Shown here: piece by piece, positions 20,866 to 29,922 of the stretch
Position numbering within the stretch: the first letter of the stretch is position 1
Layout of the letters: every line of letters begins with the position of its first letter
NCBI RefSeq assembly: GCF_030252325.1
Contig: NZ_CP126981.1
Span: 4,154,001-4,218,000 of the forward strand
Length of the DNA: 64,000 bases
DNA from: Candidatus Mycobacterium wuenschmannii
GTDB lineage: Bacteria > Actinomycetota > Actinomycetes > Mycobacteriales > Mycobacteriaceae
Direction of reading: 5' to 3'
Program-made: the position numbers and the translations under genes
The notes under the pieces: generated by a model
What the model was told of the DNA's origin: nothing
What the model saw: only the letters and a program-made list of their open reading frames with translations
Databases searched by the model: none

Positions 20866-21435
20866 GTGCTGCTTTCCGATCGCGATCTCAGGGCCGAAAT
20901 CGCCGCCGGCCGGTTGGGAATCGACCCGTTCGAGGACGCCCTGGTCCAACCGTCCAGCGTCGACGTCCGCCTCGACAGCTTGTTCCGGGTGTTCAACAAC
21001 ACCCGCTACACCCACATCGACCCGAAGCAGCAGCAAGACGAGTTGACCACGCTGGTGGAGCCGGCCGAGGGTGAACCATTCGTACTGCATCCCGGCGAGT
21101 TCGTTCTTGGGTCAACCCTCGAAACGTGCACGCTCCCTGAGGATTTGGCCGGCCGGCTCGAGGGCAAGTCCTCGCTCGGCCGACTGGGTTTGCTGACGCA
21201 CTCGACCGCCGGCTTCATCGATCCCGGCTTCAGCGGACACATCACCCTGGAGCTCTCCAACGTCGCGAACCTGCCGATCACGCTGTGGCCCGGCATGAAG
21301 ATCGGACAGCTCTGCATCCTGCGGCTGACCAGTCCGGCCGAGCATCCGTATGGCAGCGATTCGGTCGGGTCGAAGTATCAGGGCCAGCGCGGTCCCACGC
21401 CGTCGCGGTCCTATCTGAACTTCGTCAAAGACTGA
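20866..21435 (+). CDS. dcd: dCTP deaminase (dUMP-forming type)
   Basis: A 189-residue enzyme of the dCTP deaminase/dUTPase fold. Diagnostic stretches are [30 protein letters not shown] (substrate loop), [20 protein letters not shown] with the catalytic Glu, and the C-terminal [12 protein letters not shown] lid. Mycobacterial Dcd is bifunctional, converting dCTP directly to dUMP for thymidylate synthesis, and this sequence is of that kind. The start is GTG. The gene follows tRNA-Gly and is 42 bases ahead of the ammonium transporter gene. Its 3' end appears again, decayed, at 22771-22809. Confidence 0.97.
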
Positions 21436-21477: not shown

Positions 21478-22755
21478 ATGCAGCAAGTCGATCCCGCCGC
21501 GACTGCCTGGCTACTAGCCAGCACAGCCCTGGTGATGCTGATGACGCCGGGGCTGGCGATCTTCTACGGCGGCATGGTGCGCACCGCCGGTGTCCTGAAC
21601 ATGATCATGATGAGCTTCATCGCGATCCCGCTCGTGACGGTGGCGTGGCTGCTTGTCGGCTACTCGCTGGCGTTCTCCGGCGACGGCGGCGGGTTCGGTC
21701 TCATCGGCGATCTCGCCCACATCGGGATGGCGGGCATCGGCCCCGGCACCTTGCACGGCGCTGTTCCCGAACTGCTGTTCGCCACCTTCCAGCTCACATT
21801 CGCGATCATCACCGCCGCACTGGTCAGCGGCGCGATCGCCGACCGCGCGCGGTTCTCCGCCTGGGTGGTGTTCGTCCCCGTGTGGGCCATCGCCGTCTAC
21901 TCCGTCGTTGCGCACTGGGTGTGGAACCCGCACGGCTGGATGTTCAAGCTCGGCGTGCTCGACTACGCCGGCGGCCTCGTCGTCGAAATCGTCTCCGGCG
22001 CCTCAGCGCTGGCGCTCGCCCTGGTCCTGGGTCCGCGTATCGGCTTCATGAAGGACGCCATGCGCCCGCACAACCTGCCCTTCGTGTTGCTCGGTGTGGG
22101 CCTGCTGTGGTTCGGCTGGTTCGGTTTCAACGCCGGGTCGGCGCTGGCCGCCAACGGCTTAGCCGCGGCGATCTTTCTCAACACGCTGGTAGCAGGATGT
22201 GTCGGCATGCTTGGTTGGCTGGCCGTTGAGAAGATCCGCGACGGGCGGCCGACGACGTTCGGTGCGGCGTCCGGTGTCGTCGCGGGCCTCGTTGCGATCA
22301 CGCCCTCCTGCGGCACGGTCAACACCCTGGGTGCGGTCGCCGTTGGACTGGCTGCGGGCATCGTGTGCTCGTTCGCGATCACCCTCAAGTTCAAGTTCGG
22401 CTACGACGACTCGCTTGACGTCGTCGGCGTGCACTTCGTCGGAGGTGTCGTCGGGGTGCTGCTCATCGGAATGCTCGCCACGGATGTCATGACCGGCGGC
22501 GCGTCGGGTCTCGTCTACGGCGGCGGATTTCTTCAGTTCGGCAAGCAGGCCCTGGCGGCCGCCGTCGTCGCGGTCTACGCGTTCGGGATGTCGTTTCTGC
22601 TGGCCAAAATCGTCGATCGGTTCTTCGGCTTCCGCGTCAGCCCTGAGGACGAGACGGCGGGGATCGACTTCAGCGAACATGCCGAGACTGCGTACGCCGA
22701 GGGTGTGCACGGCCATCTGGCCTCACGCCGCCCGTCGGCGATCGGCGATCACTGA
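21478..22755 (+). CDS. amt: Ammonium transporter with Glu in place of first twin-His residue
   Basis: A 425-residue inner-membrane ammonium transporter with the usual 11 or so helices. Family signatures are FYGGMVRTAGVLNMIMMSFI and DVVGVHFVGGVVGVLLIG. In characterised Amt proteins two histidines line the pore (E. coli AmtB H168 in FAGGTVVHI and H318). Here the first position reads DYAGGLVVEIVSG, with Glu170 instead of His, whereas the second, His319, is kept. A Glu at this site is known in yeast Mep1 and Mep3. The codon is GAA at 21985-21987. No glnK or glnB gene lies downstream, unlike many bacterial amt loci. Confidence 0.96.
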   Translation: MQQVDPAATAWLLASTALVMLMTPGLAIFYGGMVRTAGVLNMIMMSFIAIPLVTVAWLLVGYSLAFSGDGGGFGLIGDLAHIGMAGIGPGTLHGAVPELLFATFQLTFAIITAALVSGAIADRARFSAWVVFVPVWAIAVYSVVAHWVWNPHGWMFKLGVLDYAGGLVVEIVSGASALALALVLGPRIGFMKDAMRPHNLPFVLLGVGLLWFGWFGFNAGSALAANGLAAAIFLNTLVAGCVGMLGWLAVEKIRDGRPTTFGAASGVVAGLVAITPSCGTVNTLGAVAVGLAAGIVCSFAITLKFKFGYDDSLDVVGVHFVGGVVGVLLIGMLATDVMTGGASGLVYGGGFLQFGKQALAAAVVAVYAFGMSFLLAKIVDRFFGFRVSPEDETAGIDFSEHAETAYAEGVHGHLASRRPSAIGDH

Positions 22756-22931: not shown

Positions 22932-24875
22932 GTGGATATCGTGCTCGGGGTGTCGATGGCACCCACATCGGTTCGAATGCTGCTGGTAGAAGGTGAAGAC
23001 GCCGACGGCGTCACCGTGGAAGACAATCAATTCGCCTTCACCGCGGACGACGATGCGGCGACACTGAGCGCCGCCGATCAGGTGATCTCGGCGATCCTGG
23101 GAACCCGCGAAGGCGCAATCGAGGCCGGCCACGCCCTCACGTCGACCGGCGTCACATGGACCGATCCGGTGGACGCCGCCGCCCTGCGCGACGCGCTCGC
23201 CACCCGCAAGGTCGAGAACGTCATGCTGGTGTCGTCCTTCATGGCCGCGGCCGCGTTGGCACAGACGGTCGGTTGCACGGTCGGCGACACGCACACCGCG
23301 CTGCTTTTCCTCGAACCCGACACCGCGACGCTGGCGATCGTCGACTCCGCCGACGGTTCCATCACCGACGTCCACAAAGAGTTGATGTCGGGCGGCCACA
23401 GCATCACCGAATTGGCCGGCATGGTGGCCGGTTTGGAGTCGCTGGAAACCCGCCCGCAGAGCGTGTTCATCGTCGGATCCGGCGTCGACGTCGCGACGAT
23501 CAAGCCCCAATTGGAAGCTGCCACAGCACTTCCCGTCACCGCCGCCGAGGAACCCGACACCGCGCTCGCGTGGGGCGCCGCTCTGGCGTCGGCCAACGCT
23601 CCGCTGTTCGCCTCGTCGACGGCGGCGCTGGCTTACGCGCTCGATCCCGGTACGGGCGCGATAGACCCGTATGCCGTAGCACCGGGATACCTTGCGGCGC
23701 CGGATGTTCCGTTAGGCGCTACGCCGGGCGAGGACGATCTGGCCTACAGCGCGGTACCGGATGAGGATGCCGACGCGCACACCATTGCCCAGGATCCGTT
23801 GGGTGATCAGCATTTCGACGACGAACACTTCGGCGACGAGCCCGGGCGACGCCCACTCGTGCTGGTCGGCAGCATCCTTGCGGTTGCCTTCGTCGCGGCC
23901 GCCCTGTCGCTGGAAGTGGCTCTGGCGCTTGGTATTAAGCCCAGCGTTGCGCTGCTGCCGAGGCCGCTGCAGAACCTGATCATTCAGTCGCCGGTTCCCG
24001 CCGCGCCGCCGGCCCCGGCTTCGGCTCCGGCTCCGGCTCCGGCGAGCGTCGACGTTCCCGCGGTCGCGGTCCCGCCCGCGAATGTGCCGATCCCGGCGGC
24101 CCTGCCACCGGCGCCGGCGGCCCCTGCTCCCGCGCCGCCGCCGGCCGCACTGCCGATTCCGGCCCCGGCGCCGATCATCGAGGCTCCGCCGCTACCGGCC
24201 GCACCGCCACCTGCCCCCGTGGTCGCGGCACCGCCGGTTTTCGTCCCGCTACCGGTGCCGATCCCCGTGCAGCGACCGAATCCCGTCCACGTGGGTCCGG
24301 TGCGCGGGCCGACGCCGCCCGTGCACGTGCCCCCGGCGCCCCCGCCCGTGCAGCTTCCGGACCCGAAGCCACCGGTCAGCGTGCCGCAGCCGCCCGTGGT
24401 CGTCCCGCCGGTCGTCGTCCCGCCGGTCCAGCCTCCGGTGCAACAACCGGATCCTGTGCGCCCGCAGTCGCCGCCGCTCATTCCGGGGCTACCGGGTCTG
24501 CCGGAGTTGGGCATTCCGGGGCTTCCGGGCATACCGGCGCCCGGTGTGCCGCAAGGCCCGTCGCAGCACTCTCCGGGCGGGAACCCGGGCGGCTCCGGCG
24601 GCAACCCCAGCGGCATTGGCGGTAACCCCGGCGGTTTCGGCGGGGGACCGGGTGGCTTTGGCGGCAATCCCGGCGGTAACCACGGCGGCTTCGGCGGGGG
24701 TCCAGGCGGGTTTGGCGGCGGCAACCCTGGCGGCGGTCCGAGCGGTGGCCACGGCTCCGGCGGGTTTGGCGGCGGCGGCTTCGGTAGCGGCGGATTTGGT
24801 GGTGGCGGGCACAGCGGAGGCTTCGGCGGCGGTGGCTTCGGTGGCGGCGGCCACGGCGGCGGTGGACACCACTAG
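22932..24875 (+). CDS. Actin/Hsp70-like N-domain, membrane helix, Pro/Gly-rich tail (paralogue 1)
   Basis: A 647-residue protein, first of three tandem paralogues of a mycobacterial family (I think DUF7159). It starts at GTG after GGAGG. Residues 1 to about 300 have the outline of a degenerate actin/Hsp70-like fold: VLGVSMAPTSVRMLLVEG at the phosphate-1 position, FLEPDTATLAIVDSADGS at phosphate-2, and VFIVGSGVDV with DTALAWGAAL at the adenosine motif. The acidic catalytic residues are weak or missing. A single membrane helix follows (about 307-335). Then come about 200 residues rich in Pro, Ala and Val and a tail of GGFGG-type repeats ending HGGGGHH. With no signal peptide, the N-domain should be cytosolic and the tail in the wall. 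Function unknown. Confidence 0.85.
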   Translation: MDIVLGVSMAPTSVRMLLVEGEDADGVTVEDNQFAFTADDDAATLSAADQVISAILGTREGAIEAGHALTSTGVTWTDPVDAAALRDALATRKVENVMLVSSFMAAAALAQTVGCTVGDTHTALLFLEPDTATLAIVDSADGSITDVHKELMSGGHSITELAGMVAGLESLETRPQSVFIVGSGVDVATIKPQLEAATALPVTAAEEPDTALAWGAALASANAPLFASSTAALAYALDPGTGAIDPYAVAPGYLAAPDVPLGATPGEDDLAYSAVPDEDADAHTIAQDPLGDQHFDDEHFGDEPGRRPLVLVGSILAVAFVAAALSLEVALALGIKPSVALLPRPLQNLIIQSPVPAAPPAPASAPAPAPASVDVPAVAVPPANVPIPAALPPAPAAPAPAPPPAALPIPAPAPIIEAPPLPAAPPPAPVVAAPPVFVPLPVPIPVQRPNPVHVGPVRGPTPPVHVPPAPPPVQLPDPKPPVSVPQPPVVVPPVVVPPVQPPVQQPDPVRPQSPPLIPGLPGLPELGIPGLPGIPAPGVPQGPSQHSPGGNPGGSGGNPSGIGGNPGGFGGGPGGFGGNPGGNHGGFGGGPGGFGGGNPGGGPSGGHGSGGFGGGGFGSGGFGGGGHSGGFGGGGFGGGGHGGGGHH

Positions 24876-25094
24876 CCCGGTGGCCCGAACCGTGAGAAGG
24901 TAAAATCGGCTACGAAGAGTCGGCCCCGGGGGCTTCAGTGGACAGTCGTCCCTGGCCACTTCTTCATAGAAAACAGCTAGGTCCGCGGTAGTTTTGCCGC
25001 GTTCCGGAGTGGCAATAACGTCTGTGTTCGCGGCCGTGAACGGCGCGCTTTTTCAGACGGCCCGCGGACGACTAGCGAAGTGGCGGGAGGATTG

Positions 25095-26695
25095 GTGGAC
25101 ACCGTACTCGGTGTGTCGATGGCGCCCACTGCGGTCCGCATCGTGCTGGTCGAGGGACAAAATGCCGACGGCGCGACCGTCGATGAAGACAATTTCGCCG
25201 TCAGCGGCAACGAAGATCCAGCAACGTTCAGCGGGCCGGACCAGGTGGTCGCGGCGATTCTTGGCACCCGCGAGGGGGCCAACGAAGCCGGCTACGACCT
25301 GCTGTCGACGGGTGTGACCTGGACCGACCAGCATGCCGCCGCCGAGCTGCGCGACGTGCTGGCCGCCCGCAAGGTCGAGAACGTGATGCTGGTGTCGTCG
25401 TTTCTGGCCGCCGCGGCGCTGGCGCAGTCGATGGGCAGCGCCACCGGTTACGCCCGCAACGCCCTGCTCTACGTCGAGCCCGACACCGCCACTTTGGCCG
25501 TGGTGAACACCACCGACGGCTCGATCATCGATGTGCAGCGCGAGCAGCTGCCCGACGACGACGACCAGGCGGTGGCTGCGCTGGTCAATCTGGTCTCCGC
25601 CGCCGGAGAACACGACCAGAACCCCGAAGGCCTGCTGGTGGTGGGCGCGGGAGTCGACATTCCATTGATCAAGCCGGCCCTCGAAGACGCGGCCTCGCTC
25701 CCCTTGAGCGTGCCCGACCATCCCGAGACGGCACTGGCCCGCGGCGCCGCGCTCGCGTCGGCCCACGCGCCGCTGTTCGCCTCGTCGACCGCGGCGTTGG
25801 CGTATGCGCTGGACCCGGGCACCGGCTCGGTCAGCCAACACGTGGACGCGCCCGGCTACCTGGCCGTTGCCGAGGCCGCCGTACCCGACCCGGATGCGGG
25901 TGCGGACGCGCTGGCCTACAGCGCCGTCGCCGACGACTCGGCGGCCGTGTACACCCAGCTGGGTCCCGATGCGTACGAACCCGAAGACTTCACCACCGGG
26001 ATGTACCCCGACTTCGGTCGGCTGCAGCAGGAACACGAGAGCCGCCGGCCGTTCCTGGTGGCGATGGGCGTGCTACTCGTCTTCGTCACCGGCGTGATGG
26101 GGCTGGTGATCTCGCTCGCGTTCAGCATCCGGCCGTCGGCCAACACCCGACCCAGCCTCAGCCACAACGTGATTGCACCGGCCCGCATCCCGGCTCCCGC
26201 CGCGCCTCCAGCGCCCGCGCCGGTGCCGGAGGCCGCTCCGATCCCGGCGGCCGTCCCGGCACCCGCTCAGATCCCCGCCCCGGCGCCGCCGCCTGCGTTT
26301 GCACCCGCCCCGGCGCCGCCGCCGATCTTCGCCCCACCCCGCCGGCGGTCGTGCCGGCGCCGATCCCGATTCCGATCGCCCCGATTCCCGGCCTGGTGCC
26401 GGGGCCGGGCTGGGGAGGACCCCCCGACCGCGGTCCCGGCTGGGGTGGTCCGGGCGGCCCAGGGCGCGGACCCGACTGGGGTGGTCCCGGGCGTGGGCGC
26501 GGTCCCGACTGGGGCGGCCCAGGACGCGGCCCCGGCCCGAAAGGCCCAGGTTGGGGCGGTCCTGGCGGCGGCAAAGGGAAGGGCGGCTTCCCGGGCATTC
26601 CCGGTATCCCGGGCTTCGGTCACGGCGGTGGCGGCGGCTGGGGCAAGGGCGGCGGCGGCTGGGGCCATGGCGGCCACGGCGGCCACGGCCACTGA
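25095..26695 (+). CDS. Actin/Hsp70-like N-domain protein (paralogue 2), frame break
   Basis: Second paralogue. The GTG at 25095 is chosen because it aligns with both sister proteins (MDTVLGVSMAPTAVR) and follows GGGAGG by 5 bases. Domain order is the same: N-domain 1-310, membrane helix about 317-340 (RRPFLVAMGVLLVFVTGV), Pro-Ala stalk, Gly-rich tail. As written, the frame runs into an Arg-rich sequence after PPIFAPP and stops at 26741. One extra C in the run 26337-26340 would restore the family-like text PIPIPIAPIPGLVPGPGWGG and the tail GGWGHGGHGGHGH, ending at 26695 (533 residues). Either the sequence lost a base here or the gene is frameshifted. Confidence 0.8.
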
Positions 26696-26830
26696 CACGC
26701 GCGACCGCATAGGGAAAACAACCCATAGCCGCGTGGTCTGACCAGTCGGTATCGTCGTACTAGCAGACATCGAGCTCACTGCTCACGCCGCTGGACACCT
26801 GTTTGGCAAGCGAGCAGTTTTGGAGGAGAA

Positions 26831-28481
26831 GTGGACACCGTACTTGGCGTGTCGATGGCACCCACTGCGGTCCGCATGGTTCTTGTCGAGGGCGAGAACG
26901 CCGATGGCGTGACGGTCGACGAAGACGGTTTCGACGTCAACGCGTCTGCGGATGCCCCGACGATCAACGCTGCTGACCAGGTTGTCTCGGCCATTCTTGG
27001 TACCCGGGAGGGTGCCGTCGACAGCGGTTACGACGTCCGGTCCATCGGCGTGACCTGGACCGATCCGATCGAGGCGGCGGCACTGCGCGACGCGCTGGCG
27101 GCTCGCAAGGTCGAGAACGTGATGCTGGTGTCGTCGTTCCTGGCCGCTGCGGCGCTGGCGCAGGTCGTTGGCGGCTCCGTCGGATACGCCAAGACCGGGC
27201 TGCTGTTCGTCGAGCCCGACACCGCCACGCTGGCCGTGGTCAACACCGCCGACGGCTCCATCGCGGAGGTACACCGGCAGCCGCTGACGCCGGGGCGCGA
27301 CTCCCTCTCCGAACTGGCCGCGCTGGCATCCGGCGCCCAGGGCCTGGACACCCGGCCCGACGGTCTCTTCCTGGTCGGCTCCAACGGCGTTGACATCACG
27401 ACACTCAAGCCGCAGCTAGAGGCCGCGACCGGGCTGATCGTCAGCGCACCCGAGGAACCTGAGACCGCGCTGGCGCGCGGGGCGGCGCTGGCGTCGGCCA
27501 ACGCCCCGTTGTTCACCTCGTCGACAGAAGCGCTGGCTTACGCGCAGGACCCCGGCACCGGCTTCATCAACCCGTACGCCGTCGCGCCGGGCTACTTCGA
27601 CGTCGCAACCGATAACAAGACCGGCGAGCAGGCTCTGGCCTACAGCGCGGTCGCCGACGACGACGACGACTTCACCGCGTTCGCCGACGAAAGCGAATTC
27701 GAGACCGGCCTCTACACCGGCTCCACCTATACCGGCGTCGCCGAGGCCCAACCGGAAGGCGGCCGTCGGCCGTTGTTCCTGGTCGGCAGTGCCGTCGCCG
27801 CGCTGTTCGTCGTGGGTGCCGCCGCGCTGCTGGTCGCCCTGGCCATCAACCTGCGGCACACCGCCGACACCCGGTCCGACCCCGGCCACGGCGCCAAACC
27901 CGCGCCCGCCTCGGCGCCCGCGCCGCCCCGGCGGCACCCCGCCGGCCCCGGAAGCGCCCGCCCCGGCACCCGAAGCGCCGGCACCCGCGCCCGAAGCTCC
28001 GGCCCCGGCACCCGAGGCCCCCGCGCCCGCGGCACCTGCACCGGCGCCCGTGCAGGTCGCCCCGGCGCCCGCACCGGCCGCGCCTCCTGCCGTTCCCGCT
28101 CCGGTGGCCCCGGCCCCGGCGCCGCCACCCGCGGTCGTCCCGATTCCCATTCCGGTTCCGGGCGTCCCGCCGATCTTCGGTGGGCCTCGACAGGGACCGT
28201 GGGGTCCCGGTGGTGGGGGCTATCCCGGCAACGGCGGTGGCGGCTATCCCGGCAACGGTGGCGGCGGCTATCCCGGCAACGGTGGCGGCGGTGGTGGCTA
28301 CCCCGGTAACGGTGGTGGTGGCGGCGGCTATCCCGGTAACGGTGGCGGCGGTGGTGGCTACCCCGGTAACGGTGGTGGTGGCGGCGGCTGGCCCGGCGGC
28401 GGAGGCGGTGGCGGTGGCCACGGCAGCGGCGGCAGTGGCGGCGGCCATGGTGGCGGGGGTCACGGCGGCTGGGGCCACTGA
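26831..28481 (+). CDS. Actin/Hsp70-like N-domain protein (paralogue 3), frame break
   Basis: Third paralogue, GTG start directly after GGAGGAGAA. The N-domain is the cleanest of the three (LFVEPDTATLAVVNTADGS; FLVGSNGVDI; ETALARGAALASA). The membrane helix is at about residues 312-338. As written, the frame switches to Arg-rich sequence after SAPAPP and ends at 28309. Removing one base between about 27926 and 27949 gives the expected stalk (repeated APAPE, then VVPIPIPVPGVPPIFGG) and a tail of GGGGYPGN repeats ending GGHGGWGH at 28481 (549 residues). The break is in the same part of the protein as in paralogue 2 but has the opposite sign. Confidence 0.8.
28209..28400 (+). repeat. Tandem 24/30-base coding repeats (GGGGYPGN)
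   Basis: Three 24-base units (GGGGYPGN) are followed by three 30-base units (GGGGGGYPGN) and a variant unit ending YPGN-like GGWPGG. They encode the flexible tail of paralogue 3. Such repeats can change copy number by slippage. Confidence 0.85.
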
Positions 28482-28596
28482 CCGGCGCCCTCTGGCCTGC
28501 GCTTTCAACCCGCAGCACGAAACCGTCACCTGACGTTTGACCCCCGCTCAGGAGAGCGATGCCGTTAGCTCATTGCGGCGACTTACACACGGGTGT

Positions 28597-29922
28597 ATGA
28601 GGTGCACCGTATTTGGTACCGGTTATCTGGGTGCTACCCACGCCGCGGGGATGGCCGAGCTGGGGCACGAGGTAGTCGGCGTCGACATCGATCCCGGTAA
28701 GGTCGCCAAGCTGGCCGCGGGTGACGTCCCGTTCTACGAGCCCGGATTGCGAAAGATGTTGCGCGACAACATCGCCGCCGGGCGTCTTCGCTTCACGACC
28801 GACTACGATCTGGCCGCCGACTTCGCCGACGTGCACTTCCTCGGCGTCGGCACACCGCAGAAGCGTGGTGAGTACGGTGCCGACCTGAGTCATGTCCACG
28901 CGGTAATCGACACGCTCGCACCGCGTTTGACAGGCCCCGCGGTGATCGTCGGAAAATCCACCGTTCCCGTCGGGACCGCCGCCGAGTTGGTACAGCGCGC
29001 CCGCGGGGCCGCGCGCCGCGGCGTGGACGTGGAAGTGGCGTGGAATCCGGAATTCCTCCGCGAGGGGTTCGCGATCCAGGACACCCTGAAGCCCGACCGC
29101 ATTGTGCTTGGCGTGCAGGACGGTTCGACGCGGGCCGAGGCGGCGATCCGGGAGATGTACGCGCCGATGCTCGAGGCGGGTGTCCCGTTCCTGGTGACGG
29201 ACCTGCAGACTGCCGAACTGGTCAAGGTGTCCGCGAACGCCTTCCTGGCGACCAAGATCTCCTTCATCAACGCGATCTCCGAGGTGTGTGAGGCCGCGGG
29301 CGCCGACGTGACGCTGCTGGCGGACGCCCTCGGGCACGATCCCCGCATCGGGCGTCGATTCCTCAACGCGGGCTTGGGCTTTGGCGGTGGCTGCCTGCCG
29401 AAGGACATCCGGGCGTTCATGGCCCGCGCCGGCGAGCTGGGAGCCGACCAGGCGCTGACATTCCTGCGGGAAGTCGACAACATCAACATGCGCCGCCGCA
29501 CCCGCATGGTCGAACTCGCGACCAAGGCCTGCGGCGGTTCACTGTTGGGGGCCAACATCGCGGTGCTCGGCGCGGCGTTCAAGCCCGAATCCGATGACGT
29601 GCGGGACTCCCCGGCCCTCAACGTGGCCGGCCAGCTGCAGCTCAACGGGGCGGCCGTCAACGTCTACGACCCCAAGGCGCTGGAGAACGCGCAGCGACTC
29701 TTCCCGACGCTGAATTACGCAGTGTCGGTGGAGGAAGCGTGTGATCGCGCCGATGCGGTGCTGGTGCTCACGGAGTGGCCGGAGTTCGTCGACCTCGACC
29801 CCGGCGCGCTCGCTGACCGGGTGCGCTCCCGCGTCGTGGTCGACGGTCGCAACTGCCTCGACCTGCATCGCTGGCAGCAGGCCGGCTGGCGCGTCCACGC
29901 CCTGGGGCGGCGCGTAGCCTGA
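28597..29922 (+). CDS. udgA: UDP-glucose 6-dehydrogenase
   Basis: A 441-residue member of the UDP-glucose/GDP-mannose dehydrogenase family, which oxidises the sugar nucleotide twice with NAD to give UDP-glucuronate, a precursor for wall polysaccharides. Seen: the Rossmann motif FGTGYLGATHAAGM at the N-terminus, KSTVPVGTA, NPEFLREGFA, the central ELVKVSANAFLATKISFINA helix, and the catalytic Cys266 in GLGFGGGCLPKD. The ATG at 28597 is chosen because the Rossmann strand begins there; upstream codons in this frame do not resemble the family. In M. tuberculosis dcd and udgA are adjacent; here amt and the three paralogues lie between them. Confidence 0.95.
   Translation: MRCTVFGTGYLGATHAAGMAELGHEVVGVDIDPGKVAKLAAGDVPFYEPGLRKMLRDNIAAGRLRFTTDYDLAADFADVHFLGVGTPQKRGEYGADLSHVHAVIDTLAPRLTGPAVIVGKSTVPVGTAAELVQRARGAARRGVDVEVAWNPEFLREGFAIQDTLKPDRIVLGVQDGSTRAEAAIREMYAPMLEAGVPFLVTDLQTAELVKVSANAFLATKISFINAISEVCEAAGADVTLLADALGHDPRIGRRFLNAGLGFGGGCLPKDIRAFMARAGELGADQALTFLREVDNINMRRRTRMVELATKACGGSLLGANIAVLGAAFKPESDDVRDSPALNVAGQLQLNGAAVNVYDPKALENAQRLFPTLNYAVSVEEACDRADAVLVLTEWPEFVDLDPGALADRVRSRVVVDGRNCLDLHRWQQAGWRVHALGRRVA

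What the first reader, a model, noticed from the sequence alone, without database searches (positions are those of the whole stretch)
22932..28481. Three tandem proteins linking an actin/Hsp70-like domain to a wall-spanning Pro/Gly tail
The N-domains show the spacing of ASKHA-fold nucleotide proteins: GVSMAPTxVR at phosphate-1, EPDTATLAVV at phosphate-2, VGSGVD with TALARGAAL at the adenosine site. No signal peptide precedes them, so they should be cytosolic, with one helix and then a Pro-Ala stalk and Gly/His tail outside. That is an unusual architecture: an ATPase-like sensor joined to an extracytoplasmic fibre. The match is by eye.
Basis: inference. Interest (0 to 1): 0.7.

Follow-up and report, generated by a model that had tools for sequence, protein, structure and literature searches.

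The report
Membrane-anchored degenerate actin-like wall proteins
Three neighbouring genes of a mycobacterium encode proteins with an inner actin/Hsp70-like domain that seems to have lost its ATP-handling residues, one membrane helix and a long proline- and glycine-rich outer tail; they belong to a family found across mycobacteria whose function is unknown, and they may link the growth machinery inside the cell to the cell wall.

The parts
22932..24875 (+). ORF1, 647 aa: DUF7159 N-domain, one TM helix, Pro-rich stalk, Gly/His-rich end, all in one frame
22932..23597 (+). ORF1 actin/Hsp70-like (ASKHA) N-domain, residues 1-222
   Evidence: AlphaFold2: 18 of the 22 ten-residue blocks have mean pLDDT 90 or more, the other four 73-88; BBB-a-B-a-B-a twice; Foldseek and VIA
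22947..22967 (+). phosphate-1 position GVSMAPT (residues 6-12): hairpin turn; the ASKHA Asp position holds Ser/Ala
   Evidence: placed by the model only: the N-half shows no sequence similarity to Hsp70-like NBDs above shuffles
23313..23330 (+). phosphate-2 position EPDTAT (residues 128-133): E replaces the Asp, no Gly run
23472..23588 (+). adenosine segment, residues 181-219 (VGSGVD ... DTALAWGAALA)
   Evidence: hhalign to Hsp70-like NBDs score 41.7 against at most 23.6 in 60 shuffles
23856..23933 (+). ORF1 transmembrane helix, residues 309-334
   Evidence: hydropathy and the helix at 312-334 of the model
24249..24269 (+). core [VIL]P[VIL]PIP[VIL] in the ORF1 tail (from residue 440), shared with Hsp70-like proteins
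25080..26741 (+). ORF2, 553 aa: DUF7159 N-domain, TM helix 26055-26111, start of Pro stalk; frame changes in the stalk
26351..26695 (+). Pro/Gly/His-rich ORF in another frame, resembling the tail of ORF2-like relatives (not joined to ORF2 here)
26831..28309 (+). ORF3, 492 aa: DUF7159 N-domain, TM helix 27791-27847; frame changes in the stalk
27789..28481 (+). Pro/Ala then Gly/His-rich ORF in another frame, resembling the tail of ORF3-like relatives (not joined to ORF3 here)
   Evidence: (P0177)
20866..21435 (+). dCTP deaminase (dcd), conserved upstream flank of the array
28537..29922 (+). UDP-glucose dehydrogenase (udgA), conserved downstream flank of the array

Best explanation
Each gene encodes a bitopic membrane protein. 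SHOWN by computation: the N-terminal ~222 residues are a minimal actin/Hsp70-like (ASKHA) domain of family DUF7159 with degenerate phosphate loops, followed by a low-confidence (probably disordered) acidic linker, one TM helix and, in ORF1 and in relatives, a Pro-rich stalk that often holds a conserved VPxPIPx core and a Gly/His-rich end. INFERRED: the N-domain stays in the cytosol as a nucleotide-independent (or weakly binding) pseudo-NBD that docks a protein partner; the stalk crosses the periplasm and docks an extracytoplasmic partner through the core; the protein thus couples an inner assembly to the wall, much as GspL links the cytosolic ATPase GspE to the outer parts of type II secretion. 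The likeliest setting is polar envelope growth, because Hsp70-like proteins of the Rv0312 kind, which have the same architecture and tail core, include a reported member of the FhaA (elongasome) interactome and of the MtrA regulon.
For: Family and fold. Sequence-level ASKHA signal in the C-half: hhalign to Hsp70-like NBDs 41.7 against a best of 23.6 in 60 shuffles; FGGY_C over its cut-off (30.5 against 27 bits) in the third C-half of the ABC fusion. Degenerate site. Cytosolic N-domain: 58 of 360 returned relatives carry an ABC Walker pattern, 57 of them without a later segment of KD 1.8 or more; one lies in this genome beside an FtsX-type permease. More R/K before than after the helix in 233 of 297 (equal in 50, fewer in 14). 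Shared tail core: 60 of 117 and 42 of 54 DUF7159 tails (sets) and 13 of 19 Hsp70-like tails; 4 of 14,050 shuffled DUF7159 tails. DUF7159 lies directly downstream of an Hsp70-like gene in 2 of the 7 genomes seen by both searches. Papers, passages only: PMC11898655 (MSMEG_0692/Rv0312 in Table 1 of FhaA interactors, 1 TMH) and PMC11126594 (Rv0312: Hsp70-family domain, MtrA regulon). No FtsA, and no MreB match apart from DnaK and the Hsp70-like L048.
Against: No functional data on any DUF7159 protein were found; no paper in the library holds the name. The FhaA and MtrA links are for the Hsp70-like relative, not for DUF7159; my match of L049 to Rv0312 is by architecture and recall, and no Rv0312 or MSMEG_0692 sequence was compared. 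PMC11898655 lists 'ATP binding' for MSMEG_0692, so the relative may not be nucleotide-free. The tail core is missing in the set (0 of 110), as is the Gly/His end. N-half similarity to Hsp70-like NBDs is not above shuffles (13.3 against up to 16.5), so phosphate-1 rests on the model alone. In the three window ORFs the charge bias across the helix is weak (R/K 2 against 1, 3 against 2, 2 against 2). A full-length ABC fusion was found in 1 of 41 genus genomes.
Confidence: 0.42

Rival explanations
1. The N-domain is a working nucleotide-binding ATPase sensor that signals energy state to the outer tail.
For: ASKHA fold; G182 in 65 of 65, G215-A216 in 65 of 65, an acidic residue (E 62, D 3) at the phosphate-2 position in 65 of 65; 'ATP binding' listed for the Hsp70-like relative MSMEG_0692 (PMC11898655).
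Against: No Asp at the phosphate-1 position (S 52, A 5, gap 8 of 65); no Gly-rich phosphate loop; second adenosine Gly is Ser in 61 of 65.
Confidence: 0.15
2. DUF7159 is mainly a docking module for an ABC-type export or FtsEX/MacB-like system; the stand-alone bitopic proteins recruit or regulate such a transporter.
For: Natural fusions to an ABC ATPase with extra C-half repeats, one of them beside an FtsX-type permease.
Against: Full-length fusion in 1 of 41 genus genomes, while DUF7159 is in 193 of 198; none of the 19 window ORFs scanned matched an ABC ATPase.
Confidence: 0.17
3. The proteins are surface adhesins or antigens whose function is in the Pro/Gly tail, the N-domain being only a cytosolic plug.
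For: Long low-complexity tails; Gly/His-rich ends in 85 of 120 (one search set) and 48 of 62 non-fused (one search set), though 0 of 120 in the set.
Against: The N-domain is well conserved (invariant in 65: T75, W76, G182, A211, A213, G215, A216 among others) and occurs without the tail in ABC fusions.
Confidence: 0.13
4. ORF2 and ORF3 are decayed here, so only ORF1 is a full protein.
For: Frame changes in the stalk of both; relatives L006 and L007 have them in one frame.
Against: N-domains are open and match the family; R-rich, apparently other-frame tail stretches appear in 29 of 292 relatives with long tails, as expected if sequence errors in GC-rich repeats are common.
Confidence: 0.13

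Closest known systems
Pfam PF23717 (DUF7159), genus Mycobacterium
   Same: All three ORFs are members well above the cut-off.
   Different: Pfam's line gives no function or fold; tails differ between branches (Gly/His end here; DUF7157 end in others).
Hsp70-like NBD-TM-Pro/Thr proteins of mycobacteria (Rv0312 kind, by recall; L049 and L048 here)
   Same: ASKHA domain, one TM helix, Pro-rich tail; tail core in 13 of 19.
   Different: NBD ~340 aa, matches PF00012; L049 and L048 read LDFGGGGTS and CDFGGSGTT at phosphate-2; DUF7159 is ~222 aa and the three ORFs do not match PF00012.
GspL / PilM-PilN (type II secretion, type IV pili)
   Same: An actin-like cytosolic domain linked to an outer part; PilM among the fold matches; review passages read (PMC4471445). 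GspL's single TM helix is recalled.
   Different: GspL's periplasmic domain resembles the ferredoxin-fold PilN; here a low-complexity Pro/Gly tail. None of the 19 window ORFs scanned matched a secretion or pilus family.
ASKHA superfamily: ROK kinases, CoaX, FtsA, BiP (VIA); EutJ, DnaK, PilM (Foldseek)
   Different: Phosphate-loop residues absent in DUF7159.

Membership tests
DUF7159 (PF23717) | profile match above the curated cut-off | tested here: met
   64.1, 58.4, 58.9 bits against 27
ASKHA superfamily | duplicated BBB-a-B-a-B-a fold | tested here: met
ASKHA superfamily | phosphate-1 Asp (DxG) | tested here: not met
   S 52, A 5, gap 8 of 65; motif definition recalled
ASKHA superfamily | Gly-rich phosphate-2 loop (DxGGGT) | tested here: not met
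   E-P-D-like turn; position 128 E 62, D 3; position 129 P 63 of 65
ASKHA superfamily | adenosine segment with GG and GAA | tested here: inconclusive
   G182 65 of 65 but S183 61 of 65; G215-A216 65 of 65; profile similarity to Hsp70-like NBDs there
ASKHA superfamily | ATP binding or hydrolysis | not testable with these tools
   needs purified protein
Hsp70 (PF00012) | profile match | tested here: not met
   no PF00012 match at E <= 1 for the three ORFs; NCBIfam shows only HscA at E 0.04-0.05, far under its cut-off, for two of three
Hsp70 (PF00012) | substrate-binding domain after the NBD | tested here: not met
   linker, TM helix and Pro/Gly tail instead
MreB (PF06723) / FtsA | profile match of the three ORFs | tested here: not met
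   no such match at E <= 1; fused relatives reach MreB_Mbl only below its cut-off (E 0.0004-0.008)
GspL-type coupler | actin-like cytosolic domain plus one TM helix | tested here: met
   fold and helix; cytosolic side inferred from fusions and charge count
GspL-type coupler | ferredoxin-like periplasmic domain | tested here: not met
   by composition only: the ORF1 tail is 88 Pro and 73 Gly of 320 residues; the tail was not modelled

The most novel reading that the evidence does not exclude
This mycobacterium has no FtsA and no true MreB match, but its genus carries a nearly universal, locally multiplied set of bitopic pseudo-actin proteins. Together with their Hsp70-like cousins these could form a cytosol-to-wall linkage in which degenerate ASKHA domains bind the polar scaffold (FhaA/Wag31) and a shared outer VPxPIPx core docks one wall partner: a nucleotide-independent stand-in for FtsA/RodZ-type couplers. 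Repeated C-halves fused to an ABC ATPase would be the same docking module reused on a transporter.
Probability: 0.25. Interest if true: 0.78.

Novelty: new variant of a known kind. Interest (0 to 1): 0.52.

Why it matters
DUF7159 scores above its cut-off in 193 of 198 sampled genomes of the genus and, of 66 genera sampled in the order, in this one only, with 1 to 9 matches per genome, yet no paper in the library names it. Recognising it as a degenerate actin/Hsp70 domain on a membrane stalk gives a testable place to look: how a genus without MreB or FtsA (both searched for in this genome only; for the genus recalled) connects its inner growth machinery to a thick wall. The shared tail core gives a specific bait for finding the outer partner.

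Tried and rejected
Rejected: Hsp70 membership (no PF00012 match); MreB or FtsA membership; SpoIVA_ATPase (E 0.056) and HscA (E 0.047 and 0.038) as real family hits, though the HscA stretch coincides with the adenosine segment. A PDB sequence search with one N-domain gave one chance-level hit (E 0.35); the profile search with A3 was dominated by low-complexity tails and ABC parts. N-half of DUF7159 against N-half of Hsp70-like NBDs: no signal (13.3; best of 40 shuffles 16.5), and N-half against C-half of DUF7159: none. The second AlphaFold job, on an ABC fusion (P0128 with 42 rows), gave a weak model (mean pLDDT 64.5, pTM 0.41); it hints that the extra C-half is a third RNase-H-like half, and I draw nothing on how the domains pack. 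Literature: searches gave nothing used; led to PMC4471445, again to PMC11126594. PMC6528289 (a predicted ligand for Rv0312), PMC8006519 (predicted Rv2264c epitopes), PMC2936551 (Rv2264c only as the edge of a cosmid) and PMC4319475 (a table row) were seen as passages and did not bear on mechanism; PMC8562490 does not name these genes in its main text. The other papers were seen as listings only. GspL itself is not among the 50 rows shown of either fold search; PilM is. Foldseek TM-scores are modest (0.33-0.44 by the 346-residue query, which includes the unfolded linker).

Limits: relatives in the tallies are related, so counts are not independent events. 'Rv0312-like' and 'Rv2264c-like' for L049 and L048 are my assignments by architecture and recall. 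Family names of PDB hits and the ASKHA motif definitions are partly recalled. In one search, 13 of 35 loci were not found by the pattern and 4 more (L023, L024, L026, L034) were left out of the alignments by choice. In one search, 5 of 22 Hsp70-like loci were not found by the pattern; of the 17 found, L049 and L050 are the same gene, so 16 are distinct, and one (L058) has a tail cut by the end of its stretch. In one search, 58 ABC fusions, 5 proteins with short tails and 5 without a helix were dropped; the ABC fusions and tails under 60 residues (281 of 360 remained), and 2 of 21 Hsp70-like loci without a whole tail. The TM test is a hydropathy threshold. In one search, two genomes outside the genus (G056, G279) and the Caulobacter control have matches below the cut-off.
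Full report
What is there. The window lies in a 5.10 Mb genome that is Mycobacterium by its relatives (all 8 named loci). Three + strand ORFs follow each other: ORF1 22932-24875, ORF2 25080-26741, ORF3 26831-28309. All three match Pfam DUF7159, a family of unknown function, at 64.1, 58.4 and 58.9 bits against a cut-off of 27. Each has one strong hydrophobic helix some 90-100 residues after the N-domain; a weaker segment at residues 97-115 of ORF1 and ORF3 lies in the folded core. None has a signal-like N-terminus by hydropathy; of 297 relatives with a helix, 14 have an N-terminal segment of KD 1.8 or more.

The tails. ORF1 runs in one frame through a Pro-rich stalk into a Gly/His-rich end (88 Pro and 73 Gly in 320 residues). 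ORF2 and ORF3 do not: their frames change in the Pro-rich stretch, and Gly/His-rich parts are open in other frames (26351-26695 and 27789-28481). The same three genes in L006 and L007 have in-frame tails. Whether the change is real or a sequence error in GC-rich repeats cannot be told; R-rich, apparently other-frame stretches are seen in 29 of 292 relatives with long tails.

The nucleotide site. But of 65 aligned sequences, the phosphate-1 Asp position holds Ser 52, Ala 5, gap 8; phosphate-2 reads E (62) or D (3), then Pro (63); the second adenosine Gly is Ser in 61; GA at 215-216 is kept in 65. I read this as a degenerate site that may not bind nucleotide. This is inference until tested.

Topology. 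An ABC Walker pattern is present in 58 of 360 returned relatives (all 58 among the 120), 57 of them without a later segment of KD 1.8 or more, the other at 1.87. One fusion is in this genome (L014 5949-8180), with the C-half present three times, beside an FtsX-type permease. A domain fused to a cytosolic ATPase is most simply cytosolic. In the bitopic relatives, R/K are more numerous before than after the helix in 233 of 297, equal in 50, fewer in 14; in the window ORFs the bias is slight (2:1, 3:2, 2:2). So the N-domain is probably inside and the tail outside.

Distribution and neighbourhood. In the order, 38 of 298 genomes score above the cut-off, all of this genus; two more, outside it, match below the cut-off, as does the Caulobacter control. 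In the genus, 193 of 198 score above it, 2 below, 3 have no match. This genome has five copies. The array sits between dcd and udgA in 8 of 8 loci where both flanks are in the fetched stretch (16 loci tested).

The Hsp70-like cousins. The same genome encodes two Hsp70-family proteins of like build, L049 (673 aa) and L048 (566 aa): NBD, one helix, Pro/Thr-rich tail. All 17 loci read by the pattern (16 distinct genes; 5 of 22 were not found by it) show the same build. In 2 of the 7 genomes seen by both searches (G048, G250) a DUF7159 gene follows an Hsp70-like gene directly. In these two the DUF7159 tails carry M-T-M-Y-L-H-x-P-F-V-x-I-P-I-P-I, and their Hsp70-like neighbours M-T-T-x-W-x-H-V-P-L-L-P-x-P-I-P. 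The long form is in 10 of 19 Hsp70-like proteins with a whole tail (0 of 3800 shuffles); no protein among the 360 returned relatives had the L-x-x-P-F form. The shorter core [VIL]P[VIL]PIP[VIL] is in 60 of 117 (one search set), 42 of 54 (one search set, non-fused) and 0 of 110 (one search set) DUF7159 tails and in 13 of 19 Hsp70-like tails; shuffled DUF7159 tails reach it in 4 of 14,050. ORF1 has it at residue 440.

Mechanism. Best reading: a bitopic coupler whose degenerate actin-like domain binds a protein inside and whose stalk docks a partner outside. The envelope-growth setting is borrowed from the Hsp70-like relative: MSMEG_0692/Rv0312 is in the table of proteins detected exclusively in FhaA-mediated complexes, with 1 TMH and 'ATP binding' as proposed activity (PMC11898655, passages), and Rv0312 is annotated with an Hsp70-family domain in the MtrA regulon (PMC11126594, passages). 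This genome has no FtsA match, and MreB_Mbl matches only DnaK and, below cut-off, L048. GspL is the closest published architecture (PMC4471445, passages). No paper in the library names DUF7159.

Verdict. The fold and topology calls are good; the ATPase claim is not supported; the architecture is known in kind. New here, as far as these searches show, are the assignment of DUF7159 to degenerate ASKHA domains, the ABC fusions with repeated C-halves, and the outer core shared with the Hsp70-like family.

Noticed in passing
L014 5949-8180 (G000:C1:3707948-3710176): DUF7159 with its C-half present three times, fused to an ABC ATPase and followed by an FtsX-type permease gene; similar fusions are 58 of the 120 best profile hits listed, but a full-length one was found in 1 of 41 genus genomes.
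   Followed up: partly
25080-26741 and 26831-28481: Frame changes within the Pro-rich stretches of ORF2 and ORF3; intact copies of both exist in relatives. Real or sequence error not decided.
   Followed up: partly
21478-22755: An ammonium transporter gene lies between dcd and the DUF7159 array here; no match to it (E 1e-8) in the 16 related loci tested, and in the 13 where dcd is seen the array follows dcd within about 200 bases.
   Followed up: no
L020 1510-2655 and similar loci: Another DUF7159 branch ends its Pro stalk in a conserved DUF7157 segment (RLRDRIIERIPIINRFHEP), perhaps a second outer docking end.
   Followed up: no
L074, L075: DUF7159 genes directly downstream of Hsp70-like genes carry a tail motif very like that of the Hsp70-like family.
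   Followed up: partly
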